From the NCBI GenBank assembly GCA_029239455.1, contig JAQZAX010000003.1, positions 1 to 40,196 on the forward strand: a stretch of 40,196 bases of DNA, written 5' to 3'. Origin of the DNA: Anaerocolumna sp. Lineage in GTDB: Bacteria; Bacillota; Clostridia; Lachnospirales; Lachnospiraceae. This document shows positions 1,796 through 34,519 of the stretch, in pieces; positions within the stretch are counted from its first letter, which is position 1, and each line of letters starts with the position of its first letter. The notes under the pieces were generated by a model, which saw only the letters and a program-made list of their open reading frames with translations, searched no databases and was not told the origin of the DNA. The position numbers and the translations under genes are program-made.

Positions 1796-1869
1796 GGTGT
1801 CAGGCACCCTTACAAATTTCTTACGAAATCTTTGGATTTCGTAAGAAAAACGTAAGGGTGCCTGACACC
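1796..1869. repeat. palindromic hairpin element, copy 1 (type A: CCCTTACAAATTTCTTACGAAA core)
   Basis: GGTGTCAGGCACCC...GGGTGCCTGACACC inverted repeat, 5 nt after the stop of the AraC gene; flanks aaaaac/gttttt extend the stem. Confidence 0.95.
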
Positions 1870-1939: not shown

Positions 1940-3241
1940 ATGTTAATACGAAAGAATGCGTGCAGCAAAATAATCCTGGGGTTGATAATATTTAGTGTTA
2001 TGCTTTTCAGTCATTACAGGACGATCCAAGTTAAGGCATCAAGTAGCAACAATTATCTTGTACTTGTTCAAAATAGTGATAAGACCTGGACAGCATATGA
2101 AGATGTGATGGAACAATCTTCAGGAGGCAACCTGATGATTCAGGCTAAACCCATAGCTCTGGCACTTAATATGAAATATATCGAACGCAGTGATGGCACA
2201 TTTAGAATCAAGCGAAGTACCTATAGATATAATACTTATACCATAGGGGAAAGAAAATATTCCTTTAAAAGCAGCAGCACTTTAAGTACTGTTCGGACAG
2301 CAGTTTATGCCCCATATATTAGCCATGTGAGCGGAAAAGCATTGATCCACTCAAGTACCATAAATTCCATGGTTTATAATAAATATTTTAGTATTGCTAA
2401 CGCAGCTGAGTTTAGAGCGAAAGGGTACCGTGGCGTGGCATGTTTTAGTATCTATGGGGAGATAACGGAAGTTCCTTCCATAGATGAAGTTGTAAATTCA
2501 TTTGGTGAGAAGTATTTTGAAGGCACCGATCTGGTAGAAGTAGTTCCTATAGATCAGGAGACAGAGAACCAAGGCTCAGGTAGTTCAGGTAGTGAGTGGC
2601 AGCAGGAAGTTGAAAAACTCACTTACCAGACAGAGAATAAACTCATATTCGTTGGAGACTCAAGATTCAACAATATGAGCCGGTGGGTGCAGCCAAGTGT
2701 AAATTCTGAGTTTATTGCCAAGAATGGAATCGGTTATGAATGGTTTTTGAATGTTGCAATTGATGAAGTGACGGAATTGATAAAACCGGGTGATGTTATT
2801 ATTGTGTGGTTAGGGGTAAATGACTATTATTCCACCAGCTATGGCAGTGATTCCTGGCTGGCTTACGCTGAAACCATTAATAATTTGGCTAACGAAGAGT
2901 GGGCGGACTGCAAGGTGTATGTTTCAGAAGTAGGCTATGTGGATTCTAATCGTATCTATGATTATTACGGTAAATACAAAATGATGAATGTTTCCCAGTT
3001 GGGTTACGAATATGAGATAAACGGAATTCAGGAGTTCAATGAAATGCTAAAGAGTAATCTAAATGAGAATATAACCTGGATTGACACCAATGCGGTAATT
3101 GGCATAAATAGTAATGACTATGAATTGACCCCGGTATCGTATTGGCTTACCAGAGGTAATGGCAAGAAGGATGGTATACACTACGGGAAAGACGTAAGTG
3201 TTGCGTTATATAACCATTTTGTAGATGCGATATTTAAATAG
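1940..3241 (+). CDS. secreted SGNH/GDSL-like hydrolase with N-terminal signal peptide
   Basis: AGGAGG before ATG 1940; hydrophobic N-terminus; LIFVGDSRFNNM and VIIVWLGVNDYY SGNH-like blocks, GIHYGKD near the C-terminus; stop TAG uses the first G of repeat copy 2. Confidence 0.65.
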   Translation: MLIRKNACSKIILGLIIFSVMLFSHYRTIQVKASSSNNYLVLVQNSDKTWTAYEDVMEQSSGGNLMIQAKPIALALNMKYIERSDGTFRIKRSTYRYNTYTIGERKYSFKSSSTLSTVRTAVYAPYISHVSGKALIHSSTINSMVYNKYFSIANAAEFRAKGYRGVACFSIYGEITEVPSIDEVVNSFGEKYFEGTDLVEVVPIDQETENQGSGSSGSEWQQEVEKLTYQTENKLIFVGDSRFNNMSRWVQPSVNSEFIAKNGIGYEWFLNVAIDEVTELIKPGDVIIVWLGVNDYYSTSYGSDSWLAYAETINNLANEEWADCKVYVSEVGYVDSNRIYDYYGKYKMMNVSQLGYEYEINGIQEFNEMLKSNLNENITWIDTNAVIGINSNDYELTPVSYWLTRGNGKKDGIHYGKDVSVALYNHFVDAIFK

Positions 3242-3315
3242 GTGTCAGGCACCGTGAACAAAGTGTGAACAAATGTACTGTATTTGTTCACACTTTGTTC
3301 ATGGTGCCTGACACC
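3241..3315. repeat. palindromic hairpin element, copy 2 (type B)
   Basis: GGTGTCAGGCACCGTGAACAAAGTGTGAACAAATGTACTGTATTTGTTCACACTTTGTTCATGGTGCCTGACACC. Confidence 0.95.
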
Positions 3316-3321
3316 TTTTAG

Positions 3322-3350
3322 TTGATAAAACCATAGAAAACCCTTATAAT
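3322..3350 (+). promoter_or_regulatory. candidate sigma-A promoter for the jet operon
   Basis: TTGATA (3322-3327), 17-nt spacer, TATAAT (3345-3350), 6 nt after repeat copy 2. Confidence 0.6.
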
Positions 3351-3432
3351 GTTTAATAACTTAACTACCAGCTAAACCACCAACCGAAACCCAGCAGAAC
3401 TAACCGAAACCAGACGAAGCAAGGAGATTTTA

Positions 3433-4914
3433 ATGAACCTATCAGAGAAACAAGTAAAGCCTATAATTGAGACCAAGTATCTGACTGCAGATAATGTGTC
3501 CAGGTACCGTGCTATCCTGCGTTTCTTTTATCTTCAGTATGAGAAGATAAAATACTGGCTCTACCAGGAAGATGTTTTTGAGGAAATGATATCCCATGAC
3601 ATATTTCGGGACTATACCATGGAACAGTGCAGGCAGGATTTGGATGCATTAGTTGGCTGGAACAATCTGTCTCCCATGCAGGATACCAAAAAAGTTACAT
3701 CCATAGAAGCCTTTAAGAATAAAAAGTTTCGCTATCAGCTTACAGAATATACAGTGGAAATAGAGAGAATGGCCATCAAACTGGAGAATCTGTTTGTAGA
3801 GGGAGCCTCTTTAGAACCAACCTTGTTAGAGAGAATACGAAAGAATCTGTCTCAGATTACTTCTATTAAAAATGAAGAAGATTCAAAGATTTATACCTGG
3901 TGGAGCGATTTAAGTAATGACTTTATCAGACTGAATCAAAATTATCAGGATTACATCAGGGACTTAAGCAGCCTGCGAGCGGAAGAGATGATGAAATCAA
4001 GAGAATTCTTAATTTTTAAAGATAAGTTAATAGAATATTTAAGAACATTTGTAAAAAGTTTGCAAATGAACTCTGGAACCATAGAAAAGCACCTCCTTGA
4101 CGTTACGGGGGAGGAATGGGAAATAATAGCGGGCAAAATAACTGCTTACGAAATGTCGATTCCCAGATTAGAGATTGAACGTAAAGAGAGCGACATCAGA
4201 GAGAAAATTGATGGGCGATTTGAAAGCATTAAGGAATGGTTTATCGGAAAAGATGCAGACTCCAATGAGGCAAGTCATTTGTTTGATACCACCAACGAAA
4301 TCATCCGCAAGATTACCAGATATGCGGCACAGATAGCGCAAATGTACGGAAGTGGGGCAAACCGTAAGGAAGAATATCAAAAACTATGTCAGATATTTTC
4401 CAGATGTTGTGATATCAATGAAGCCCATAAACTTTCCGCTTATGTTTTTGGAATAGAAAGACCAATCCATCTAAAGGGCGACTTTATTCGTGAAACAGAT
4501 AGTATCAATAGTGGTGTGTACGAAGAAAATCCATTTTCACTGACCGTAGTGCCAAGAGTTAGAAACTACAGGGAGAAGTCGAACCGAAGCCATATCAGGG
4601 AACATACTGCAGAGAAAGAGGAAGTCAAACAGAATATGTTGTTAACCATCGAAAAGGAGCGCCAACTAGTAAATAGCTATATTATAGATAACCAGATTGT
4701 ATTTGCGAAACTGCCGGTGATTGAGCCGGAGGTCAGGAATGTTTTACTACGGTGGTTGTCAAAAGCATTGGAACATAAGAGTAAATCTGCCAAAACAGAG
4801 GATGGAAGACAATACAAAATAGAGCTGGATGATTCGGAGAAACAGTGCGAATTAAGATGTAGGGACGGAATTTTTAATATGCCTGCTTACAAGCTGATAT
4901 TTACTGAGGGGTAA
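3433..4914 (+). CDS. jetA: Wadjet type II JetA-like protein (TIGR02677/DUF2397 family)
   Basis: SRYRAILRFFYLQYEKIKYWLYQEDVFEEM... and LVGWNNLSPMQDTKKVTSIEAFKNKKFRYQLTEYTVEIERM resemble the DUF2397 N-terminal pattern; first gene of a four-gene tandem. Confidence 0.8.
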   Translation: MNLSEKQVKPIIETKYLTADNVSRYRAILRFFYLQYEKIKYWLYQEDVFEEMISHDIFRDYTMEQCRQDLDALVGWNNLSPMQDTKKVTSIEAFKNKKFRYQLTEYTVEIERMAIKLENLFVEGASLEPTLLERIRKNLSQITSIKNEEDSKIYTWWSDLSNDFIRLNQNYQDYIRDLSSLRAEEMMKSREFLIFKDKLIEYLRTFVKSLQMNSGTIEKHLLDVTGEEWEIIAGKITAYEMSIPRLEIERKESDIREKIDGRFESIKEWFIGKDADSNEASHLFDTTNEIIRKITRYAAQIAQMYGSGANRKEEYQKLCQIFSRCCDINEAHKLSAYVFGIERPIHLKGDFIRETDSINSGVYEENPFSLTVVPRVRNYREKSNRSHIREHTAEKEEVKQNMLLTIEKERQLVNSYIIDNQIVFAKLPVIEPEVRNVLLRWLSKALEHKSKSAKTEDGRQYKIELDDSEKQCELRCRDGIFNMPAYKLIFTEG

Positions 4915-4917
4915 GTC

Positions 4918-6066
4918 ATGAATATACTAGAAGAGCTAATGAATGAGCGCTGGATTGTTAAAGCGAAGGATAAAGATAAATACTATTATATTAAGGATAA
5001 CATTGGAGAGCTAAAGAAGTTTCTTGCAGAAAAACTAGGATATCATATATTTGTGACTCCGGCAATGATTAAGCTTGAGAAGATTCCAGGAAAAGCAGAG
5101 AACTGGATGGGAGTGGAGGATTTTACGGATCCCATAGAATATGGATTTCTTTGTATCATTCTTATGTTTTTAGAAGATAAAGAGGCGGAGGAACAATTTG
5201 TATTGTCTCAGCTTACAGAATATATTTCATCTAAATACCAGGATGCAGAAATTGATTGGACAAAATACCACACCAGAAGGCAACTAATTCATGTAATAAA
5301 ATTTTGCTTAAAGAATTCTTTATTTACTATTGATGATGGCACAGAAGAAGAATTCTCCTCCAACTATGAGGCAGAAGCGCTTTATGCCAATACAGGATTA
5401 TCAAGGTATTTTATGAGAAATTTTACAACTGATATTATGGGTTACTCAAAACCTAAGGACTTTGAGAATAGTGAATGGATGGATATGAATCAGGACCGCG
5501 GATTTGCCAGACGCCACAGAGTTTACCGTAGAATACTAATGTCTATGGGTGTTTATAGTGAAGGTACAGAGGATGAAGATTTTGTATATATCAAACACTA
5601 CCGTAATATGATTGAAAATGATTTGGAGCAATATCTAGATTGCAATCTTCAGGTTCATAAAACCAGCGCTTATCTAGTGATTGGGAAAGATGGAGAATTA
5701 GGAAGAACATTTCCGGAGAATAACACACTTTCAGATATTATTCTGTTATTTCATAATATGATTCGCCAGAAGGTGACACAGGGAATTCTAAATGCCTCAG
5801 TTGATGAAAACATGGATATGTCCCTTGCCGGATTTGAACAGCTCATAAATGAATTCAGACAAAAATACCGAAGTGGATTTATTAAGACATATCGGGATAA
5901 AACCAGCGGAGAATTTACAGAATTGCTTAAAAAATATATGATATTTATGGAAATGATACAAATAGACTTGATACACAACCAGGTTACCATTCGACCAATT
6001 GTGGGGAAAATAACAGGCCAGTATCCAGAGGATTACAAGATGGAGGAAAGTAACGATGCAGAATAG
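4918..6066 (+). CDS. jetB: Wadjet type II JetB-like protein (TIGR02678/DUF2398 family)
   Basis: LMNERWIVKAKDKDKYYYIKDNIGELKKFLAEKLGYHIFVTPAMIKLEKIP... and YHTRRQLIHVIKFCLKN; 3-nt gap from jetA, overlaps jetC. Confidence 0.8.
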   Translation: MNILEELMNERWIVKAKDKDKYYYIKDNIGELKKFLAEKLGYHIFVTPAMIKLEKIPGKAENWMGVEDFTDPIEYGFLCIILMFLEDKEAEEQFVLSQLTEYISSKYQDAEIDWTKYHTRRQLIHVIKFCLKNSLFTIDDGTEEEFSSNYEAEALYANTGLSRYFMRNFTTDIMGYSKPKDFENSEWMDMNQDRGFARRHRVYRRILMSMGVYSEGTEDEDFVYIKHYRNMIENDLEQYLDCNLQVHKTSAYLVIGKDGELGRTFPENNTLSDIILLFHNMIRQKVTQGILNASVDENMDMSLAGFEQLINEFRQKYRSGFIKTYRDKTSGEFTELLKKYMIFMEMIQIDLIHNQVTIRPIVGKITGQYPEDYKMEESNDAE

Positions 6067-9000
6067 CAAATGGGTGATTCACAGAATCGGACTGATTGAT
6101 TTCTGGTATTATGACGAGGAAGAATTTCATTTTCTGGATGGAAGATTATTACTCCGAGGAGCCAATGGTTCTGGTAAGTCAGTTACCATGCAAAGTTTTA
6201 TTCCCCTTCTTTTGGATGGAAACAAAGCCTCTGAGCGATTGGACCCATTTGGCTCTAAAGCTAGAAAGATTGAAAATTATCTGTTAGAGGAAAATGATGA
6301 CAGGGAAGAGAGAACCGGATATCTCTACATGGAATTCAAACGAAAAGAAAATGACACCTTTCTGACCATTGGAATCGGTCTTCGCGGACGAAAATATAAA
6401 AAGCTTGAATCCTGGTATTTTTTCTTATCAGATGGAAGAAGAGTAGGAAAAGACTTCTTCCTGTATAAGGATATGGACCACAAAATAACCCTTAGCAAGG
6501 TTGAACTAAAGAACCGCATTGGTGAGGGCGGTAAAGTTTTTGAGAGCCAGAAGGAATACATGGAATATGTAAATGAACAACTCTTTGGATTTGATTCCGC
6601 AGAAGAATATAAGGAACTGATTAATTTATTGATTCAGCTAAGAACACCTAAGCTTTCTAAGGAATTTAGACCAACGGTAATCAATGAGATTCTGAGTAAT
6701 TCCCTGCAGACACTATCGGAGGATGACCTGCGTCCCTTGTCAGAAGCCATTGAAAATATGGATGCACAGAAGACAAGTCTTGACAATCTGCTAGATGGCA
6801 AAAAAGCAGCGGACAGAATTAAATTCATATATGATGACTATAATAAAGCGGTTCTTGTTGAAAAGGCATCGAAATACAAAAGCTGTAAGGATAATAAATT
6901 GCAGCTGGAAAGACAGCTTGCCGATGGCAAGGCAAATTTAAATGCAAAAAGTGAACAGCTAGAACAAACGAATTTAAAAGGACAGGCTCTGGAAGAAGAG
7001 CAGAAAATCTTAGAGGAACAAAAGAAGAACCTTGAGAAAAACGATGCCCTTTTATTAAGGGAACAACAACTGGCACTGCAACAGGAGATAGAAGAGCGAA
7101 CAAAGAATCTGGCGGTAAAGGAGAAGAACCTGGAAGAAAAAGAAATCAGGCAGAAAACCTTGGAAGTGGATGCTAAGAAAAAGCAGCAAACAGCAGAAAT
7201 TCTCGGGAATGATATTCATCAGAAACTAAGTGAAATGAGGGAAGACCTACAGGGAGTAACCTTTGATGAACATGAATTTATGGTTTCTGAATTAAAGGAA
7301 GAGATGAAAAAGCCCTACGGATTTGCTACCATTGAAGCCATGGCAGGAAAGCTCCTAGACCGGATTAGCACTGCCATTGATAAATGGAAAGACCAGGAAC
7401 GCCTCAGTGAAATATACGACATCCAGTTAAAGGAGTTAGAGGATAAGAAAAAGGAACGGGACACCCTTGAAAGAGAGGAAGCCCAGGCCCAAACTCAGCT
7501 GACGGAAGTAAAAAATGAGCTGATTGAGAACCTATATGGCTGGGAGAAAAACAATGAAGAACTAAAACTTTCAAGAGAACGGTTACAATTATGTACGGGT
7601 CTTATTGACCGTTTTGATGAATCTGCAGATTATGCTGTAATCAGGGAAGAAATCAGGGATGCGAAAACAGAATATAGTTCGGGATATCAGGAAGCAATTG
7701 TTAAGAGTGAGCATGATCTGAAATTACAGATTCAGGAGGAAGAGGAGAAAAAGTCACTCCTTAATGATTGGATGAACCGTAAGGACCCGGAACCTGAGAA
7801 ATCAAATGCAGTTACGAGAAACCGTGATAAATTAAGGGGTCTAAATATACCATTCTATCCCTTTTACAAAGTTGTGGATTTTGCAACTGGGATTGACAGC
7901 GAGAAAGCGGACAGGCTGGAAGAAGCATTATTAGAAATGGGTATTTTAGATGCCATAATTGTACCTGGGCATTATAAAGAAAAAGTATACCAGTGTGACT
8001 TAGGGTTTTGTGACAAATATATTTTTGCTGATATCAGCCAGGTAAAAGAGAATATTAGCAGTGTGCTTGAGCTAGATAATGAGATTGATAATATTATATT
8101 ATTTCAGGAGTTGTCCGCTGTTTTAAGAGGAATCGGGGTAGTTAGCGGTGAAAGTACCTTTATTAGGGAAGACGGCACCTATGGAATCGGAATCCTAAAA
8201 GGAACGGTAACAGGCCAATATAAAGCAAAATATATCGGTGTAAAGGCAAGGGAAAAATACCGTCTGGAAATGATAGCTTCCTTGGAAATGCAGGTAAATG
8301 AGGCATTTGCAAAGAGGCAAGAAATCGAAGTGAAAATTAAGAAATTACATTTATCCAAAGAACAGTTAGAAATGGAATTTCAACAATTTCCCTCAGGTGA
8401 AGACCTAAAGGTTGCAGCAAAAGAATGCGCTGATATCAAAGCAAAATTAGGATATATCGGTGATGAAATTAAAAAACGAGAAGAAAGAGCCCAGGAAATA
8501 TATCTAAAACTTACCCAGATAAAGCAGGAAGTTGTTACTTTATGCAGTGAAATCTATATTAAACCGGGGCTTACAGCATTAACGGAGGCTTTTAGCTCCA
8601 TAAAACAGTATCTCTCAAATCTATATTCACTTCATAGAATGCATTTAAATTATATTCATGAAGAAGAATTGCACCTCTCCCTTTGTAATCAGATTGAGGA
8701 TTTGGAAGCAGATTTAGATGATATTCGTTACGAACTAAATATGCAGCAGCGTAAGATACGAGAAACCGGAGGAAAATTGGAGGCATGTACAAAACAGCTG
8801 GAATTAACCAATTATAGTCAGATAAAGGATCAATTAGACTTTTGTATTATGCGGTTACTCGCACTGCCAAAAGAAAAAGAGGAAACGATTGTCCTGGCAA
8901 CGAATCTCAAAAGCGAAATTGCAACAGGGGAATTGCAGAATAAACGCCTGATAGAAGAAGGGAAGCGTGCAGAACAACTGCTAGCACTTCTTAACAGGGT

Positions 9001-10276
9001 TTTACAGGAGGAATATGAACTTCATTACGTGTATTCTGAGGAAAAAGTGGATCATGAGGGCACTGAGGAAATAGTGGATCATGAGGGTACTGAGGATAAA
9101 GTGGATCATGAGGGCACTGAGAAACAATTACGCTCCACTGTATACAAAGAAAGCAGGATGTCGTCAGAAGCCCCTAGAATAGATGCAGATAAAATCGCCA
9201 GGGAAATTCTAAAAGAATATGCCTATATTCTGGAAGGTAAACGAATCAACGAACTAGAAAGCACTTTGCAGGAACGTGTATTTCAAAATGCAGCTGCACT
9301 GGTTGAATACAATGTCACCAGAAACTTTATTTTTACAGCAGAAGATTATAAAGATGAGGAAGCAGATTATGATAAGAGCAATTTTCGAAGAATTGACCTA
9401 CTGGGAAAATATCAGGGAAAATCCGTTACCTTTAATCAATTAATTTATCATATGCAAACAGATATTGAGACTCAGAAAAACCTGTTAAAAGATAGTGACA
9501 GAGAGTTGTTTGAAGAGATTCTTACCAATACCATAAGCAAAAAAATTCGCAGCCGAATCTTTATGAGTGAAGACTGGGTGAATAAAATGAATGCCCTGAT
9601 GAATTCCATGAATACATCAAGTGGTTTAAAATTAAGCCTAAAATGGAAGCAGAAAAAGGGAGAAACAGAAGAACAGTTAGATACTGGGGAGCTGGTGGAG
9701 TTATTAAAAAAGGATACAGAGTTAATGCGGGAAGAGGAATTTGTGAAATTATCGAAGCATTTTCGTTCAAAAATTGCAGAAGCAAGAAGAATTCTAGAAG
9801 ACACCGGAAGCGTGCAAAGTTTTTACGGCATTATTAAGGAAGTTCTGGATTATAGAAAGTGGTTTGAATTCCAGCTATATTTCCAAAAAACCGGAGAAAA
9901 AACAAAAGAACTTACCAATAGTGCATTCTTTACCTTTAGTGGTGGTGAAAAGGCTATGGCTATGTATGTTCCGCTATTTTCTGCAGTTGTGGCTAAATAC
10001 CAGGGAGCAAGGGCAGATGCACCAAGGTTAATATCCTTAGACGAAGCATTTGCTGGTGTTGACGAAACTAATATTCGGGACATGTTCCGCCTGATGATTG
10101 AATTTGACTTTGAATTTATTATTAACTCTCAGATACTGTGGGGCGATTATGACACTATGCCAAATCTTGCGATTTATCAGCTGTTGCGCCCTGAAAATGC
10201 TAAATTTGTGACTACCATTCCTTATATATGGAATGGTCATCAGAAGCTGGTGGTAGATAAAATTGGTGATGAATGA
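6056..10276 (+). CDS. jetC: Wadjet type II JetC-like SMC/SbcC-type ATPase (TIGR02680 family)
   Basis: KWVIHRIGLIDFWYYDEEEFHFLDGRLLLRGANGSGKSVTMQSFIPLLLDG (Walker A); long coiled coils; FSGGEKAMAMYVPLFSAV (signature); LISLDEAFAGVDE (Walker B). Confidence 0.92.
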   Translation: MQNSKWVIHRIGLIDFWYYDEEEFHFLDGRLLLRGANGSGKSVTMQSFIPLLLDGNKASERLDPFGSKARKIENYLLEENDDREERTGYLYMEFKRKENDTFLTIGIGLRGRKYKKLESWYFFLSDGRRVGKDFFLYKDMDHKITLSKVELKNRIGEGGKVFESQKEYMEYVNEQLFGFDSAEEYKELINLLIQLRTPKLSKEFRPTVINEILSNSLQTLSEDDLRPLSEAIENMDAQKTSLDNLLDGKKAADRIKFIYDDYNKAVLVEKASKYKSCKDNKLQLERQLADGKANLNAKSEQLEQTNLKGQALEEEQKILEEQKKNLEKNDALLLREQQLALQQEIEERTKNLAVKEKNLEEKEIRQKTLEVDAKKKQQTAEILGNDIHQKLSEMREDLQGVTFDEHEFMVSELKEEMKKPYGFATIEAMAGKLLDRISTAIDKWKDQERLSEIYDIQLKELEDKKKERDTLEREEAQAQTQLTEVKNELIENLYGWEKNNEELKLSRERLQLCTGLIDRFDESADYAVIREEIRDAKTEYSSGYQEAIVKSEHDLKLQIQEEEEKKSLLNDWMNRKDPEPEKSNAVTRNRDKLRGLNIPFYPFYKVVDFATGIDSEKADRLEEALLEMGILDAIIVPGHYKEKVYQCDLGFCDKYIFADISQVKENISSVLELDNEIDNIILFQELSAVLRGIGVVSGESTFIREDGTYGIGILKGTVTGQYKAKYIGVKAREKYRLEMIASLEMQVNEAFAKRQEIEVKIKKLHLSKEQLEMEFQQFPSGEDLKVAAKECADIKAKLGYIGDEIKKREERAQEIYLKLTQIKQEVVTLCSEIYIKPGLTALTEAFSSIKQYLSNLYSLHRMHLNYIHEEELHLSLCNQIEDLEADLDDIRYELNMQQRKIRETGGKLEACTKQLELTNYSQIKDQLDFCIMRLLALPKEKEETIVLATNLKSEIATGELQNKRLIEEGKRAEQLLALLNRVLQEEYELHYVYSEEKVDHEGTEEIVDHEGTEDKVDHEGTEKQLRSTVYKESRMSSEAPRIDADKIAREILKEYAYILEGKRINELESTLQERVFQNAAALVEYNVTRNFIFTAEDYKDEEADYDKSNFRRIDLLGKYQGKSVTFNQLIYHMQTDIETQKNLLKDSDRELFEEILTNTISKKIRSRIFMSEDWVNKMNALMNSMNTSSGLKLSLKWKQKKGETEEQLDTGELVELLKKDTELMREEEFVKLSKHFRSKIAEARRILEDTGSVQSFYGIIKEVLDYRKWFEFQLYFQKTGEKTKELTNSAFFTFSGGEKAMAMYVPLFSAVVAKYQGARADAPRLISLDEAFAGVDETNIRDMFRLMIEFDFEFIINSQILWGDYDTMPNLAIYQLLRPENAKFVTTIPYIWNGHQKLVVDKIGDE
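9037..9117 (+). repeat. 3 x 27-bp in-frame tandem repeat inside jetC
   Basis: tgaggaaaaagtggatcatgagggcac / tgaggaaatagtggatcatgagggtac / tgaggataaagtggatcatgagggcac, encoding about 3 x EEKVDHEGT. Confidence 0.95.
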
Positions 10277-10299
10277 TTTTTCATATGGGGGCATAATAC

Positions 10300-11571
10300 A
10301 TGGCTACATTACAGGAGGCAGTCAGTTATTTTAAAAACAATAAGGGATATGACCGGCTATTTCTAGGCATTCAGGACAAATATGCTTCTCTTGGATTAAT
10401 GGGAGGAAGTGTAACCTTAGCAGATTTAAGAGCAGAGGAACGTGAAGTCTTAGAAGGTTTATTTCACAGAAGTTTTCGAAGTCAGCAATCAGCTAGTGTT
10501 TCAATTGTCAAACTTGAGAAAGCACTAAAGACCACAAAGTTTGGTGAATTTACCTTAAAGGAGATTGTGGAGGGTTATTTCGTGGGAACTTTATCTGCCA
10601 ATAGGGAGCTACGGGAAAGGGCAAAAGAGCGCCAGGAACATTTTTTTAATTCAGTTATTAGAGAAAGTGGCTCTAGTATTGGAATTAAGTGGCTAAGTGA
10701 TATCTTTCAATCAAGAGAAGTACCCTATAAGACCCTATTGCACAGATATCATACAGACCATTCCTCCCTACGCAGCGATTTACTAAAAGTTATGAAAGCC
10801 CTTGACTGTCTGCCTGTGTATGTGGATAAAGTAAAAAGATTACCTGTATTTGCGGCAGAGATAAGTGGCAACCCTCACTATTTAGATGAAGGTAGCGATG
10901 GGGATAGGCTTTTTACTTACGCTCTATGTAAAATATGGAATGTGCCATATCAAGACGTCAGTATTGCAGAACAAAAAGCGGAATTGCTATATAAAGCCGG
11001 TATCCTAAAAGATGAATTGTCAAATTACACAGTATGCTACAATATCAAGGCATGGAAGAAAGACAATTCTCTCCACGAAGGAATCGAGGGATTTCGTACG
11101 AGTAAGGAAACAGTCATATTTACCATAGAAACCATAAAAAACTTAAGCAAAGTTGAAGGGTTACACAATCTTATTTATGTTGTGGAGAATCCTTCCGTAT
11201 TTGGCAGTATGAAAGACTCACATCAGTTTGAGGATGCCTCACTGATGTGCACTAACGGGAATCTACGGTTAGCTTCCCTGCTTACATTGGATTTGCTGGC
11301 CAAAAGCAACACTAACATATATTATGCGGGAGATTTTGACCCGGAAGGAATCTTAATTGCAGCAAAGTTGAAAAACCGCTATAAGGACCTTCTTACTTTA
11401 TGGCATTACACCGTAGATGATTATAAGCTGGCATTATCAAATGAGCACATCGATGACAAACGTCTACATAAACTAGACAAAGTTGAGTGCGAAGAGTTAA
11501 AAGATACAATAGCGCTGATGAAGGAACTAAAGAGGGCTGGATATCAGGAGAATATGATTTCTTTATTTTAG
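10300..11571 (+). CDS. jetD: Wadjet type II JetD-like Toprim nuclease subunit (TIGR02679/DUF2399 family)
   Basis: IYVVENPSVFG and NIYYAGDFDPEGILIAAKL (Toprim-like acidic motifs); last gene of the operon; stop TAG uses the first G of repeat copy 3. Confidence 0.87.
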   Translation: MATLQEAVSYFKNNKGYDRLFLGIQDKYASLGLMGGSVTLADLRAEEREVLEGLFHRSFRSQQSASVSIVKLEKALKTTKFGEFTLKEIVEGYFVGTLSANRELRERAKERQEHFFNSVIRESGSSIGIKWLSDIFQSREVPYKTLLHRYHTDHSSLRSDLLKVMKALDCLPVYVDKVKRLPVFAAEISGNPHYLDEGSDGDRLFTYALCKIWNVPYQDVSIAEQKAELLYKAGILKDELSNYTVCYNIKAWKKDNSLHEGIEGFRTSKETVIFTIETIKNLSKVEGLHNLIYVVENPSVFGSMKDSHQFEDASLMCTNGNLRLASLLTLDLLAKSNTNIYYAGDFDPEGILIAAKLKNRYKDLLTLWHYTVDDYKLALSNEHIDDKRLHKLDKVECEELKDTIALMKELKRAGYQENMISLF

Positions 11572-11645
11572 GTGTCAGGCACCGTGAACAAAGTATGAAC
11601 AAACACTCCGTGTTTGTTCATACTTTGTTCATGGTGCCTGACACC
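11571..11645. repeat. palindromic hairpin element, copy 3 (type B)
   Basis: GGTGTCAGGCACCGTGAACAAAGTATGAACAAACACTCCGTGTTTGTTCATACTTTGTTCATGGTGCCTGACACC. Confidence 0.95.
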
Positions 11646-11739: not shown

Positions 11740-13395
11740 ATGAATACAAATAAGAAGAAAAGCCTTTTTTTATACATAATGGTGGTGTTCGTAATTGTTA
11801 TTATAGGTATATTTGCCTTCCTAATTCCAACGGAGAATTTAAGAATAGGCAGGGGTCGGGTATATGACTTAAATAGTGGCTGGAGGATAGAGTATCAGGG
11901 AGTGGTCATGAATGATGTAACACTTCCCACCAAAATAGAGGTAGCACCTAAGGAAATATATTTTGCAAGTTATGTATTTGAGGAAGAGCTACCAGAATCT
12001 ACGACTTTGCGGATCCGGTCTTCCATGCAATCAATCAGAATAACTCTTGATGGAGAAGAAATTTTTACTACGGAGAAGCCGGCGGACGGAACTTTACATA
12101 GCCCTGAAGCAAGCGTGTGGTATTTCATCCCACTGCCCTCTGGCGTAAAAGGCGAAACGCTCACCATGGAGATTTCCTCAACGATGGAAGGATTTTCAGG
12201 TATTGTGAACCCAGTGTATTATGGAGAAAGTCAAGCCTTGCATTTTGATTTGTTTAAGACCAATAGAGTAGGCTTCCTGAGTTCCGTAATTATACTGCTC
12301 CTTGGGATACTCTCAATTATTATGTCATTCTTCCTATTTAACATGGGAGACAATCGGCTATTTTATCTGGGGCTATTCGCTGTCACAGTAAGTATCTGGA
12401 TTATGGCGGAAGCGAAGCTATTGCAGTTTTTCACTGGTAATCGGTTTGTGCTTGGCGGTATCAGCTACATGATGGTTGCTCTGATGCCAATACCTTTGTA
12501 CTTATATATCCGAGATGCGGTAATAACCAAAAAGAAAAAATTAATAACTGGTTTTGCCGTAATTTTATTCCTTGATTTTGTGGCAAACATAATTCTTCAA
12601 GTTACTGGTATCGTTGGATTTCTTCCATCACTTTCGGTGACCAATGGAATAATTTTATTGACAGCAGCGGTTGTAGTCTATCTTTTATTTCGGGAAGTAC
12701 ACCGGGATAATAACATAGAAGCAAAACATTTCCTATTAAAACTTTCTTTATTTTTAGTATTAGCTGTATTTGAAATTATACAGTTTTTTAGCCAGAACTA
12801 TGCAGATATATCTAAGTATTCCAGAGTGGGTATTATTGTATTCTATTGTCTTTTAATATACGATACAATACATTATATTGATGAATTAATAGTAAAAGAA
12901 AATGAAGCTAAATTCTATCACAAACTTGCATTTAAAGATATACTTACCGGTAGTGATAACCGAACAAGCTTTAATAAAGATTTAGAAGTACTGCTTTATG
13001 GGAAGGATAAGAAGGCATTTCGCCTGATGTTATTGGACATTAACAATCTGAAAATGATCAATGATCAATTTGGACATCAGGAAGGCGATAGGGCAATCAT
13101 TAAATGTTATCAGAGTTTATCGGATGCTTTTCATAAGATAGGCAGGTGTTATCGGCTGGGTGGAGATGAATATGCCTGCATTATGAAGAACACAGATAGC
13201 AAGACATACGAACAGGCCTATCACCTTATTGGGGAGCAACTCAAACAGGAAAGTATGAGGCTGCCCTACAGCTTAGAGATTGCAGCTGGCAGCGCAATAT
13301 ACTCCCATGATTGTAATTATAATGATTTTTATAACCGTGTAGACCAATTGATGTACGAAGATAAAAGGAATAAAAAAAGGTGTCAGGCACCGTGA
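11740..13395 (+). CDS. membrane diguanylate cyclase (7TM sensor plus GGDEF)
   Basis: extracellular sensor-like N-terminus, multiple TM helices, C-terminal DILTGSDNRTSF...RLGGDEYACIM; terminal RCQAP and stop TGA come from repeat copy 4. Confidence 0.85.
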   Translation: MNTNKKKSLFLYIMVVFVIVIIGIFAFLIPTENLRIGRGRVYDLNSGWRIEYQGVVMNDVTLPTKIEVAPKEIYFASYVFEEELPESTTLRIRSSMQSIRITLDGEEIFTTEKPADGTLHSPEASVWYFIPLPSGVKGETLTMEISSTMEGFSGIVNPVYYGESQALHFDLFKTNRVGFLSSVIILLLGILSIIMSFFLFNMGDNRLFYLGLFAVTVSIWIMAEAKLLQFFTGNRFVLGGISYMMVALMPIPLYLYIRDAVITKKKKLITGFAVILFLDFVANIILQVTGIVGFLPSLSVTNGIILLTAAVVVYLLFREVHRDNNIEAKHFLLKLSLFLVLAVFEIIQFFSQNYADISKYSRVGIIVFYCLLIYDTIHYIDELIVKENEAKFYHKLAFKDILTGSDNRTSFNKDLEVLLYGKDKKAFRLMLLDINNLKMINDQFGHQEGDRAIIKCYQSLSDAFHKIGRCYRLGGDEYACIMKNTDSKTYEQAYHLIGEQLKQESMRLPYSLEIAAGSAIYSHDCNYNDFYNRVDQLMYEDKRNKKRCQAP

Positions 13396-13453
13396 ACAAA
13401 ATATGAACAGATGCATGGCATCTGTTCATATTTTGTTCATGGTGCCTGACACC
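13379..13453. repeat. palindromic hairpin element, copy 4 (type B)
   Basis: GGTGTCAGGCACCGTGAACAAAATATGAACAGATGCATGGCATCTGTTCATATTTTGTTCATGGTGCCTGACACC between convergent genes. Confidence 0.95.
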
Positions 13454-15400: not shown

Positions 15401-15475
15401 GGTGTCAGGCACCGTGAACAAAATATGAACAGATGCATGGCATCTGTTCATATTTTGTTCACGGTGCCTGACACC
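15401..15475. repeat. palindromic hairpin element, copy 5 (type B)
   Basis: GGTGTCAGGCACCGTGAACAAAATATGAACAGATGCATGGCATCTGTTCATATTTTGTTCACGGTGCCTGACACC; one base different from copy 4; lies between divergent genes. Confidence 0.95.
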
Positions 15476-16685: not shown

Positions 16686-16760
16686 GGTGTCAGGCACCAT
16701 GAACAAATTGTGAACGGATATGTAATATCCGTTCATATTTTGTTCATGGTGCCTGACACC
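16686..16760. repeat. palindromic hairpin element, copy 6 (type B)
   Basis: GGTGTCAGGCACCATGAACAAATTGTGAACGGATATGTAATATCCGTTCATATTTTGTTCATGGTGCCTGACACC directly after TAA of the HD-GYP gene; also ends the convergent ORF. Confidence 0.95.
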
Positions 16761-20884: not shown

Positions 20885-21667
20885 GTGCCGAACAGGAATG
20901 AACTTGAAAACGAGAGGAATCAGCTTAGTGAGATAGCAAAAGATATTGAAAAAGCAATAGTAAAAGAGGAATTTACACTGTATTATCAACCCCAGTTTGA
21001 CTTAAAAACTGGCAAAATTACAGGTATGGAAGCCCTAGTACGATGGATTCATCCGGTACGGGGGATGATTTCCCCGGCAATATTTATCCCATTTGCAGAG
21101 GAATCGAAACAGATCTATGCATTAGAGAAGTGGATATTTAGAAATGCTTTGCAGCAAAAAGCCCAGTGGGAAAAAGATGGTAGGAGGCATTTAGAGCTGG
21201 CAATCAACATATCAAGTAAAACATTGGGAAGCGAAGCAGCTTTTCATGAGATAGAAGAGATAATGCTGCGCTATAAAGTTGATTACACATCGGTGGTAAT
21301 TGAGATAACAGAAACAGCTTTGCTTGTGGATATGGAGCTGGCCGCAAAGCGAGTACATCGTCTTAAGAAGTTTGGGGTTAAAATAGCATTAGACGATTTT
21401 GGAACAGGATATTCCTCTCTGATGCATCTAAAAACATTACCCATAGACATAATCAAAATTGATAGAAGTTTCGTAGCCTTAGTACCGGAAGAGGAAAAAG
21501 ATACAATTATTATCAAAAATATTGTATCCTTTGCCCGTGATTTAAAATACCGCGTCGTAGCAGAAGGAATAGAAAAACAAGAACAGCTAGAGTTTTTAAG
21601 AGAAATCTCCTGTGAATCAGGGCAAGGCTTTTTGCTATGTAAACCAATAAGGTGTCAGGCACCATGA
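20885..21667 (+). CDS. EAL-domain c-di-GMP phosphodiesterase, apparently C-terminally truncated
   Basis: FTLYYQPQFDLKTGKITGMEALVRW...ALDDFGTGYSSLMHLKTLPIDIIKIDRSFV...VVAEGIE...GQGFLLCKPI then RCQAP* from repeat copy 7; start uncertain (GTG, weak RBS). Confidence 0.8.
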   Translation: MPNRNELENERNQLSEIAKDIEKAIVKEEFTLYYQPQFDLKTGKITGMEALVRWIHPVRGMISPAIFIPFAEESKQIYALEKWIFRNALQQKAQWEKDGRRHLELAINISSKTLGSEAAFHEIEEIMLRYKVDYTSVVIEITETALLVDMELAAKRVHRLKKFGVKIALDDFGTGYSSLMHLKTLPIDIIKIDRSFVALVPEEEKDTIIIKNIVSFARDLKYRVVAEGIEKQEQLEFLREISCESGQGFLLCKPIRCQAP

Positions 21668-21725
21668 ACAAAATGTGAACGGATATTACATATCCGTTCA
21701 TATTTTGTTCACGGTGCCTGACACC
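21651..21725. repeat. palindromic hairpin element, copy 7 (type B)
   Basis: GGTGTCAGGCACCATGAACAAAATGTGAACGGATATTACATATCCGTTCATATTTTGTTCACGGTGCCTGACACC; flanks caataa/ttattg extend the stem. Confidence 0.95.
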
Positions 21726-24103: not shown

Positions 24104-24176
24104 GGTGTCAGGCACCCTTACAATTTTCTTACGAAAGTGAAACTTTCGTAAGAAATTCGTAAGGGTGCCTGACACC
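24104..24176. repeat. palindromic hairpin element, copy 8 (type A)
   Basis: GGTGTCAGGCACCCTTACAATTTTCTTACGAAAGTGAAACTTTCGTAAGAAATTCGTAAGGGTGCCTGACACC between convergent genes. Confidence 0.95.
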
Positions 24177-25474: not shown

Positions 25475-26350
25475 ATGTTATTTGGTGCATTAGAAGCAGG
25501 CGGAACTAAGATGGTACTGGCAGTTGGCAACGAATATGGTGAAATAATGGAAGAGATTTCAATTCCTACAAAAGAACCAGACACTACAATTCCATTGATT
25601 ATTGATTACTTTAAAGAGAAAAATATCAGCGCTTTGGGGATTGGTTCCTTTGGACCCATTGATTTAAATGATGAATCAAGTACCTATGGGTATATAACAA
25701 CAACACCAAAACTTGCCTGGGCAAATTATGACATTGTAGGCATTATGAAGAAGGCACTTTCTATTCCCATTGGCTTTGATACGGATGTGAATGGTTCGGC
25801 GTTAGGAGAAGCAACCTGGGGAATTACCAAAGGGCTTTCTTCTAGTGTCTATATTACCGTTGGTACAGGTGTAGGAGTTGGAGTATACATAAATGGAAGT
25901 CTTTTACATGGAATGCTGCATCCGGAGGCTGGTCATATACTGTTACAAAGACATCCGGATGATAATTTTGAAGGAGTTTGCCCTTATCACCCGAATTGTC
26001 TCGAGGGTTTAGCCTCTGGACCAGCCATTGAGAAACGCTGGGGGGAAAAAGCATCTGATTTAGTGGATAAACAAGAAGTGTGGGAGCTGGAAGCTTATTA
26101 TCTTGCACAAGCCATGGTAAACTATATATTAACACTTTCCCCTAAGCGCATTGTTTTAGGCGGTGGTGTAATGCATCAAATGCAATTGTTTCCATTGATT
26201 CGCACCCAGGTAAAAACATTTTTGAACGGTTACGTTAAAACGAAAGAGTTAGATAATCTGGATGAATATATAGTACCCGCCTCACTGGAGGATAAGCAGG
26301 GGATCATGGGTTGTATTCAGTTAGCAAAGCTTAGGTGTCAGGCACCGTGA
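25475..26350 (+). CDS. ROK-family fructokinase/glucokinase-like sugar kinase
   Basis: FGALEAGGTKMVLAVG, ALGIGSFGPIDL, GFDTDVNGSALGEATWG, TVGTGVGVGVYINGSLLHG, HPEAGHILL; terminal RCQAP* from repeat copy 9. Confidence 0.9.
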   Translation: MLFGALEAGGTKMVLAVGNEYGEIMEEISIPTKEPDTTIPLIIDYFKEKNISALGIGSFGPIDLNDESSTYGYITTTPKLAWANYDIVGIMKKALSIPIGFDTDVNGSALGEATWGITKGLSSSVYITVGTGVGVGVYINGSLLHGMLHPEAGHILLQRHPDDNFEGVCPYHPNCLEGLASGPAIEKRWGEKASDLVDKQEVWELEAYYLAQAMVNYILTLSPKRIVLGGGVMHQMQLFPLIRTQVKTFLNGYVKTKELDNLDEYIVPASLEDKQGIMGCIQLAKLRCQAP

Positions 26351-26407
26351 ACAAAATGTGAACGGATATGAACATCTGTTCACATTTTATTCACGGTGCC
26401 TGACACC
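26334..26407. repeat. palindromic hairpin element, copy 9 (type B, 74 bp)
   Basis: GGTGTCAGGCACCGTGAACAAAATGTGAACGGATATGAACATCTGTTCACATTTTATTCACGGTGCCTGACACC. Confidence 0.95.
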
Positions 26408-26460: not shown

Positions 26461-26808
26461 ATGAATTTATTTGATACATTAGAAAAGGTAGGCGACACTA
26501 TTACAACACAAGGACAGGAAGTTGTAAAGAAGGCGAAAGAGGTTACAGAGAATGTGAAACTGAATGCCCAGATTCGTGAACAGGAGAACAAGTTAAAAGA
26601 TGCATATGCGGTTATTGGCAAGCTCTATTATGAAGAGAATAGAGATGCACAGGAAGAGAAATATGCGGATGCTTTTAAAACCATAGAACAGATTATTGAG
26701 AAAATAATAGAATTAAAGGGTACACAAACCTGTGAAAACTGTGGTACACAAGTAGATAAGGACGCAGTGTATTGCAGTAAGTGTGGAAGTAGGTGTCAGG
26801 CACCATGA
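26461..26808 (+). CDS. small zinc-ribbon protein
   Basis: CENCGTQVDKDAVYCSKCGSR, then CQAP* from repeat copy 10; AGGAGG RBS. Confidence 0.75.
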   Translation: MNLFDTLEKVGDTITTQGQEVVKKAKEVTENVKLNAQIREQENKLKDAYAVIGKLYYEENRDAQEEKYADAFKTIEQIIEKIIELKGTQTCENCGTQVDKDAVYCSKCGSRCQAP

Positions 26809-26866
26809 ACAAAATGTGAACGGATATGTAATATCCGTTCATTTTTTGTTCATGGTGCCTGACACC
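26792..26866. repeat. palindromic hairpin element, copy 10 (type B)
   Basis: GGTGTCAGGCACCATGAACAAAATGTGAACGGATATGTAATATCCGTTCATTTTTTGTTCATGGTGCCTGACACC. Confidence 0.95.
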
Positions 26867-32636: not shown

Positions 32637-32711
32637 GGTGTCAGGCACCCTTACAAATTTCTTACGAAAACGTTTCGTTTTCGTAAGAAATTCTTAAGGG
32701 TGCCTGACACC
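32637..32711. repeat. palindromic hairpin element, copy 11 (type A)
   Basis: GGTGTCAGGCACCCTTACAAATTTCTTACGAAAACGTTTCGTTTTCGTAAGAAATTCTTAAGGGTGCCTGACACC, 5 nt after the permease stop. Confidence 0.95.
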
Positions 32712-32778: not shown

Positions 32779-33276
32779 TTGGGTAGCATACTGAATAATC
32801 AAAAATCAAATAAAATATATAACGTATTATCAATGATTCCTGCCATAGTTATCATGGTTGGAATATTCTACTTTTCCTCTCAGGATGCATTGGAGTCCTC
32901 AAGCTTAAGCGGTGGAATCGTAGAGAATATATATCAAGTAATTGAGAAGTTTTTTAACTGGGAATTAACAGCTGCCCATAGAATACAGAGACTGGAGTTG
33001 TTTGAAACTGGAATCAGAAAAGCAGCTCATATGACGGAGTATTCATTGTTAGCAGTTACAGTTGCTTATCCCCTATATCTTTATGGCAGCAGAGGGTATA
33101 AACTTGTTCTTCGTACGGAACTTATTAGTATATTGTATGCTGTCACTGATGAAATTCATCAGCTGTATGTACCGGGACGCTCCGGGCAGATATCTGATGT
33201 ACTAATTGATGGCACAGGAGCGCTAATTGGATGTTTGTTATTTGTATTTTTAGGTGTCAGGCACCATAAACTTTAG
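32779..33276 (+). CDS. VanZ-family membrane protein
   Basis: FYFSSQDALESSSLS...IRKAAHMTEYSLLAV...AVTDEIHQLYVPGRSGQISDVLIDGTGALIG; TTG start; last residues GVRHHKL* encoded by repeat copy 12. Confidence 0.85.
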   Translation: MGSILNNQKSNKIYNVLSMIPAIVIMVGIFYFSSQDALESSSLSGGIVENIYQVIEKFFNWELTAAHRIQRLELFETGIRKAAHMTEYSLLAVTVAYPLYLYGSRGYKLVLRTELISILYAVTDEIHQLYVPGRSGQISDVLIDGTGALIGCLLFVFLGVRHHKL

Positions 33277-33294
33277 TTTATGGTGCCTGACACC
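33253..33294. repeat. palindromic hairpin element, copy 12 (42-bp miniature form)
   Basis: GGTGTCAGGCACCATAAACTTTAGTTTATGGTGCCTGACACC. Confidence 0.95.
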
Positions 33295-33754: not shown

Positions 33755-33988
33755 AATTGCTATTTTATGTGAAATGCGATATGATAATAGTATATTTGCT
33801 TTCATTATATCTTTTTTTCTACAATTCTTTATCATCTAAACTAAATTATAAAATATTTACTTTTTATCTTTAATCTATTACTTTTACCCATGAAATAAAC
33901 CCATTTTCTAATGAATCTATTTGCCATCCAAATCAATTCAAATCAATCCAAATCAATCTAATTTAATCAAGCAAGGAGATGATGTTTT

Positions 33989-34519
33989 ATACCAAGAAAG
34001 AAGAGAATATGGTACCCTGGAGCTGTATATCACGTGATAAACAGGGGAAATCATAAAAGTGATATTTTCCGTGAGGAAGAAGATTACCGAATGTTCCTGA
34101 AATTGTTAGAGAAAGCCCAGAAACAATACACCTTTTTTATTATTTCGTACTGCCTGATGACGAATCACGTACATTTGCAAATTGAAACTTCAACTTTCCC
34201 AATCTGGGATATAACTAAATATCTGTTCTGCACTTATTCTCATTATTTTAATCGAAAATATGATGAATTCGGGCATTTATTCCAGGGCAGATACAATTCT
34301 GAAATAATCGATGATGATGCTTATTATCTGGAAACCAGCAGATATATTCATTTAAATCCCGTGAAAGCCCATATAGTTACAAAGCCCATTGATTATCCCT
34401 GGAGCAGCTACAGCGCATATATGGGTGCAAGCAAATGTAGTCTTGTGAGTGAAGGTAAAATACTGGAATACTTCTCTAAAAATTCACGTTCATATAAGGA
34501 GTTTGTTGAAGCAAGATAA
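33989..34519 (+). CDS. REP-associated/IS200-like Y1 transposase (RAYT, HUH family); canonical start read as ATA
   Basis: I-PRKKRIWYPGAVYHVINRGNHKSDIF...YCLMTNHVHLQIE (HUH) ...YNSEIIDDDAYYLETSRYIHLNPVKAHIV (Tyr region). The ORF track starts at GTG 34034, but homologous-looking residues begin at 33989. Confidence 0.88.
   Translation: MPRKKRIWYPGAVYHVINRGNHKSDIFREEEDYRMFLKLLEKAQKQYTFFIISYCLMTNHVHLQIETSTFPIWDITKYLFCTYSHYFNRKYDEFGHLFQGRYNSEIIDDDAYYLETSRYIHLNPVKAHIVTKPIDYPWSSYSAYMGASKCSLVSEGKILEYFSKNSRSYKEFVEAR

What the first reader, a model, noticed from the sequence alone, without database searches (positions are those of the whole stretch)
3241..11645. Wadjet operon bracketed by two closely related repeat copies
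Copies 2 and 3 (both ...ACAAAGT(G/A)TGAACAAA...TTTGTTCA(C/T)ACTTTGTTCATGG...; about 67 of 75 bases alike by eye) flank jetABCD, with copy 3 overlapping the jetD stop codon. The 8.4-kb unit 3241-11645 therefore looks like a defence cassette between matched short palindromes. They could serve as homology for acquisition or excision, or be transcription insulation. The functional link is inference.
Basis: partly seen in the sequence, partly recalled or inferred. Interest (0 to 1): 0.72.

Follow-up and report, generated by a model that had tools for sequence, protein, structure and literature searches.

The report
Transposase-linked hairpins flanking a Wadjet operon
The two matched palindromes around this plasmid-defence operon are ordinary members of a transposase-linked hairpin family that sits at the ends of many genes here, but a sister species carries a sugar-uptake operon in the same hairpin-bounded slot, so these hairpins may be joints at which whole operons are exchanged.

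Summary
In detail: copies at 3241-3315 and 11571-11645 match at 67 of 75 bases, bracket a type II Wadjet operon (jetABCD, 3433-11571), and the second supplies the last base of the jetD stop codon. They are 2 of 13 such palindromes in the window. The genome has 87 copies of the core GGTGTCAGGCACC and none of the reversed control. The genome's only detected Y1/RAYT transposase gene lies at 33989-34519. Relatives of that RAYT, in Firmicutes, Actinobacteria and Betaproteobacteria, are flanked by the same or a variant core, so this is a REP/REPIN-like family. Elements hug stop codons (12 of 13 within 7 nt of, or overlapping, one) and can replace native terminators. None of 20 other Wadjet loci in the family carries the core. 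The cassette idea gains partial support: sister genome G003 has an alpha-glucoside PTS operon between the same neighbours, with homology to the window ending at the core on both sides. That operon is 95-99% identical to fragments of one elsewhere in this genome (background 69-87%), where it is also REP-bounded; one G003 junction looks like a REP-by-REP recombinant. A single empty element was not found at this site.

The parts
1796..1869 (.). element 1, B-type arms, 5 nt after the stop of the AraC/GyrI-like gene
3241..3315 (.). copy 2, A-type 75-nt palindrome, left border of the Wadjet slot; a single core stands at this place in G003
3322..3350 (+). promoter-like TTGATA-17-TATAAT for jetA, best of the first 20 kb
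3433..4914 (+). jetA2 (DUF2397)
4918..6066 (+). jetB2 (DUF2398)
6056..10276 (+). jetC2 (SMC/MukB-like, TIGR02680)
10300..11571 (+). jetD2 (DUF3323/DUF2399, Toprim-like, TIGR02679); stop codon completed by copy 3
11571..11645 (.). copy 3, A-type 75-nt palindrome, right border of the slot; a single core stands at this place in G003
11740..13395 (+). GGDEF gene whose last codons read into the next element (RCQAP, stop)
13379..13453 (.). element, A type, between convergent genes; G003 has a native segment of about 41 nt instead
15401..15475 (.). element, A type, between divergent genes; orthologous element in G003
16686..16760 (.). element, A type, between convergent genes; orthologous element in G003 with other arms
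21651..21725 (.). element, A type, overlaps the EAL gene stop
24104..24176 (.). element, B type, between convergent genes
26334..26407 (.). element, A type, overlaps the ROK gene stop
26792..26866 (.). element, A type, overlaps the zinc-ribbon gene stop
32637..32711 (.). element, B type
33253..33294 (.). short 42-nt element overlapping the VanZ-like gene stop, nearest to the RAYT gene
33989..34519 (+). RAYT/Y1 transposase (PF01797; NF047646 at 68.9 bits, below its 80-bit cut-off), HUH motif NHVH; probable ATA start codon
35685..35759 (.). element, B type, between convergent genes, inside a 10-bp flanking palindrome

Best explanation
The two palindromes are copies of a RAYT-associated REP/REPIN-like hairpin family: two inverted 13-nt cores joined by self-complementary arms. 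Shown: the family is dispersed through this genome, sits at gene 3' ends, and has a cognate RAYT clade whose genes are flanked by the same or variant cores in distant bacteria. Inferred: the RAYT copies the hairpins as single strands, as proposed for TnpA-REP; a hairpin at a gene end acts as terminator or 3' stabiliser, so it is tolerated there and can replace the native terminator; and near-identical hairpins at operon ends act as short portable homology (and, as palindromes, as fragile sites), so that operons between them are occasionally exchanged. The Wadjet operon occupies one such REP-bounded slot, which holds an alpha-glucoside PTS operon in the sister genome.
For: 13 elements in the window, 87 cores in the genome, 0 reversed controls. 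The only PF01797 hit of the assembly is in the window. Flanking cores at RAYT genes of Solincola, an actinomycete MAG, Neobacillus, Pseudoduganella, Bordetella and Lachnospiraceae; the window's RAYT clade is 6 of 6 with a core nearby (98/97 support) and the label is clustered on the tree (7 changes against about 13 shuffled, 0 of 500). Both genomes with more than 20 family cores among 250 Lachnospiraceae (G000, G280) have a RAYT of this kind. Stop-codon hugging: 12 of 13 in the window; 11 of 15 measurable ones elsewhere in the genome within 10 nt. Slot swap: G003 has a PTS operon between the same neighbours; outer-flank homology z 12.7 left and 6.3 right of the core, inner flanks z 0.4 and 1.6. 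Parts of that PTS operon at a different REP-bounded place in this genome, 95-99% identical up to the core edge. A native terminator-like hairpin in G003 where this genome has an element, L036:13227.
Against: One sister genome only, both assemblies fragmented, and the two G003 contigs (C92, C83) are joined by inference. The right junction of the PTS insert in G003 lies in a spacer holding about 33 nt resembling the start of a neighbouring gene, not exactly at an element. REPs sit at most operon ends, so a swap by any route would often show REPs at both ends. The RAYT is not directly flanked by cores in the window (nearest about 700-730 nt upstream), and its start codon is non-canonical. No GTAG tag. 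Transposition, termination and recombination are not shown experimentally.
Confidence: 0.68

Rival explanations
1. Coincidence of positions: elements are inserted at, or tolerated at, most operon ends. Wadjet was acquired by an unrelated route and is bracketed only because its neighbour's end and its own end each hold an element.
For: 12 of 13 window elements are at gene 3' ends; none of 20 other Wadjet II loci carries the core; a 9.3-kb difference from G013 has an element at only one border.
Against: Homology to G003 stops at the core on both sides of the slot, and the PTS operon has a core at its borders in two different contexts.
Confidence: 0.4
2. RAYT moves the whole REP-cargo-REP unit as a composite single-strand transposon.
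For: Cores at both ends of Wadjet and near both ends of the PTS operon; a cognate RAYT in the same contig.
Against: No multi-copy cargo seen; the right end of the PTS insert in G003 is not at the element; no precise empty site; I know of no REPtron that moves cargo of 5-8 kb.
Confidence: 0.08
3. The elements are host terminators or insulators maintained by selection, and the RAYT link is incidental.
For: Strong hairpins, A-rich left and T-rich right flanks, a native terminator-like hairpin at one orthologous site.
Against: Same 13-nt core in several phyla next to RAYT genes; patchy presence, 3 of 15 genomes of the genus; one window element lies between divergent genes.
Confidence: 0.15
4. Assembly chimerism at repeated hairpins created the bracket.
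For: Elements are repeats in a fragmented metagenome assembly; one contig (C130) carries two elements of identical 66-nt sequence near the PTS border.
Against: Copies 2 and 3 share at most 34 exact bases with any other element examined; the G003 left junction is a unique single core; conserved order with G003 on both sides of the slot.
Confidence: 0.07

Closest known systems
REP / REPIN with RAYT (TnpA-REP) (PMC3116915, PMC2817692, PMC8266576)
   Same: Short palindromes mostly at gene 3' ends, pairs in inverted orientation forming long hairpins, a low-copy HUH-Y1 transposase in the genome.
   Different: No GTAG tag; the arms between the two cores are themselves complementary and change in step; same core across several phyla.
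TIRtron / TIRYT (PMC3733652)
   Same: RAYT-like genes flanked by inverted repeats unrelated to GTAG REPs, with the repeats also dispersed as dimers.
   Different: Core GGTGTCAGGCACC is not the GGGGWSAS motif described there; I found no paper in the held library that prints this core as a bacterial repeat.
Type II Wadjet (JetABCD)
   Same: All four genes in order with matching PADLOC models.
   Different: Nothing unusual seen except the neighbouring hairpins.
REP-REP recombination at duplication join points in enterobacteria (from memory, not checked here)
   Same: REP copies as short homology for rearrangement.
   Different: Here it would exchange operons, including a defence system, between slots.

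Membership tests
REP/REPIN with RAYT | dispersed extragenic palindromes in many copies | tested here: met
   87 cores, 0 reversed controls
REP/REPIN with RAYT | RAYT-type Y1 gene in the same genome | tested here: met
   (68.9 bits, below the NCBIfam cut-off of 80; over the Pfam cut-off)
REP/REPIN with RAYT | RAYT gene flanked by the repeat | tested here: met
   relatives; in the window itself the nearest core is about 700 nt away
REP/REPIN with RAYT | GTAG (or CGTC) tag beside the palindrome | tested here: not met
   GTAG in 6 of 74 flanks of 20 nt, about the chance level; CGTC in 1
REP/REPIN with RAYT | RAYT cleaves the single-stranded repeat | not testable with these tools
   needs in vitro cleavage
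TIRtron / TIRYT | RAYT-like gene between inverted repeats without GTAG, repeats dispersed | tested here: met
   (in relatives; in the window the RAYT gene is not immediately flanked)
TIRtron / TIRYT | GGGGWSAS motif shared by some described TIRs | tested here: not met
   core is GGTGTCAGGCACC
Type II Wadjet | jetA2, jetB2, jetC2, jetD2 in one operon | tested here: met
Type II Wadjet | anti-plasmid activity | not testable with these tools
   needs a plasmid transformation assay
Intrinsic terminator | GC-rich hairpin followed by a U tract | tested here: inconclusive
   hairpin strong, T tract present at some copies only
Composite transposon or MITE with target duplication | direct target-site duplications at an otherwise empty site | tested here: not met
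   no direct duplication at the orthologous sites compared; native sequence replaced at two of them

The most novel reading that the evidence does not exclude
A transposase-linked hairpin that replaces native terminators lays down a grid of interchangeable joints at operon ends, and operons, defence systems included, are swapped between slots and species at these joints without an integrase.
Probability: 0.27. Interest if true: 0.78.

Novelty: new variant of a known kind. Interest (0 to 1): 0.52.

Why it matters
If REP-like hairpins at operon ends serve as exchange joints, they offer a route by which defence and metabolic operons turn over in genomes without integrases or classical islands, and the route can be tested by counting cargo differences between conserved cores. 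The same core beside related RAYTs in several phyla also gives a transposase-substrate pair whose co-variation can be tested in vitro.

Tried and rejected
Wadjet-specific flanks: 0 of 20 other Wadjet II loci have the core (a few of these loci are cut by contig ends). Rfam: no hit in the window. GTAG/CGTC tag: not enriched. Neighbouring copies being more alike within the window: Mantel r -0.32, p 0.067, not significant. IS200-type Y1 loci: no core near any. Literature search for the core sequence: no bacterial paper in the held library; a search for REP with defence islands gave nothing relevant.

Full report
Observation. The two palindromes are at the stated coordinates and match at 67 of 75 bases. 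They bracket a complete type II Wadjet operon, and the second contributes the G of the jetD TAG stop. Each is a 36-39 bp hairpin of about -64 to -68 kcal/mol. They are however 2 of 13 copies in the window, and other pairs are more alike. The genome assembly (2.46 Mb, 185 contigs, 75% complete) has 87 copies of the core GGTGTCAGGCACC and none of the reversed control.

What the element is. Two inverted 13-nt cores enclose arms of two main types (GTGAACAAA.. and CTTACGAAA..) that differ between copies but stay complementary within a copy: mismatch 0.063 and 0.065 within copies against 0.127 and 0.159 when arms are exchanged between copies. All 26 window cores are intact. The palindrome often runs on outwards: mean immediate run 2.35 against 0.63 for shuffled pairing in this genome, 2.62 against 0.87 in G003. 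Within-strand template switching would explain arms that change in step; that is inference, with published precedent for hairpins in general (PMC8794818, abstract only).

Transposase link. The only PF01797 hit of the assembly lies in the window. It is RAYT-like (NF047646, 68.9 bits, cut-off 80). RAYT-type genes there are often flanked by the exact or a variant core, IS200-type genes are not. Among 250 Lachnospiraceae genomes the nearest RAYTs of G100, G160 and G280 are flanked by variants such as GGTGTCAGGTACC, GGTACCTGACACC and GGTGCCAGGCACC. In the tree the window's clade is 6 of 6 with a core nearby, and the 23 rows of one supported clade have none. Some long branches make deep positions unsure. 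The loci came from genomes chosen for having the core; those did not.

Position. In the window 12 of 13 elements lie within 7 nt of, or overlap, a stop codon; elsewhere in the genome 11 of 15 measurable ones are within 10 nt. ORFs were called mechanically. At L036:13227 G003 has a native terminator-like hairpin where this genome has an element, and at 13379 a native segment of about 41 nt. The elements thus stand in place of native 3' ends rather than being simply added; whether by insertion followed by loss, or by replacement, is open.

The slot. G003 (same genus) is 69-87% identical over most orthologous blocks. Its contig C92 has the SGNH-labelled gene, a single core GGTGCCTAACACC, an RpiR-like regulator, PTS EIICB, a phospho-glucosidase-like gene and the start of what reads as an EIIA gene; contig C83 starts inside an EIIA gene, then a 66-nt element, about 87 nt, a single core and the GGDEF orthologue. 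Only the EIIA part was checked against Pfam; the other PTS names rest on reading the translations. I infer that C92 and C83 are neighbours. Homology to the window ends at the core on both sides. No other genome of the genus has jetC.

A second cassette. Parts of the same PTS operon are in this genome on contigs C130 and C48 (blastn 97% and 95% over 272 and 223 nt), beginning at the right half-core of an element and ending just after a 66-nt element. The C92 junction in G003 looks like SGNH-REP joined to REP-rpiR with the hairpin collapsed to one core. The right border in G003 holds a short stretch like the start of the gene that follows in C48, so that junction is not exactly at an element. 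Both C130 and C48 matches are at contig ends, so mis-assembly is a live caution.

Verdict. The palindromes are a RAYT-associated REP/REPIN-like family, not Wadjet ends. Whether the elements drive the exchange, or merely mark operon ends, is not settled by one sister genome.

Noticed in passing
window 33979-34000; L165, L166, L167, L301, L302, L304: The RAYT gene has no ATG/GTG/TTG at its aligned start; the codon 13 before the YH motif is ATA, ATT or ATC in all 6 members of its clade and in L304, with a GGAG-type Shine-Dalgarno 7-10 nt upstream. Nearly all other RAYTs compared have ATG, GTG or TTG there. Possible conserved weak start codon.
   Followed up: partly
window 13379-13395, 16744-16760, 21651-21667, 26334-26350, 26792-26808: Unrelated genes end inside the element in the same frame, giving a shared tail such as RCQAP.
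   Followed up: partly
window contig C183: 13 of about 37 paired elements found in the assembly lie in this 40-kb contig, far above the density elsewhere; not explained. Identity to G003 is like that of another contig, so misbinning is not indicated.
   Followed up: partly
L040:1167 and L392:5221: Full element here, only the right half plus core in G003, with about 200 nt of adjacent sequence missing there: palindrome-linked deletion.
   Followed up: partly
L041:2375 and L395:2190-10489: G003 has about 8.2 kb more at this place, ending at an element on one side only.
   Followed up: partly
L034:1866 and L231 (G013 C306): In G013 the gene before this element is followed directly by an RNase P RNA-like sequence; in this genome 9.3 kb lie between.
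   Followed up: partly
window 9036-9124: Three copies of a 27-nt in-frame repeat inside jetC.
   Followed up: no
L157: One IMG/VR contig carries the Pseudoduganella form of the element.
   Followed up: no
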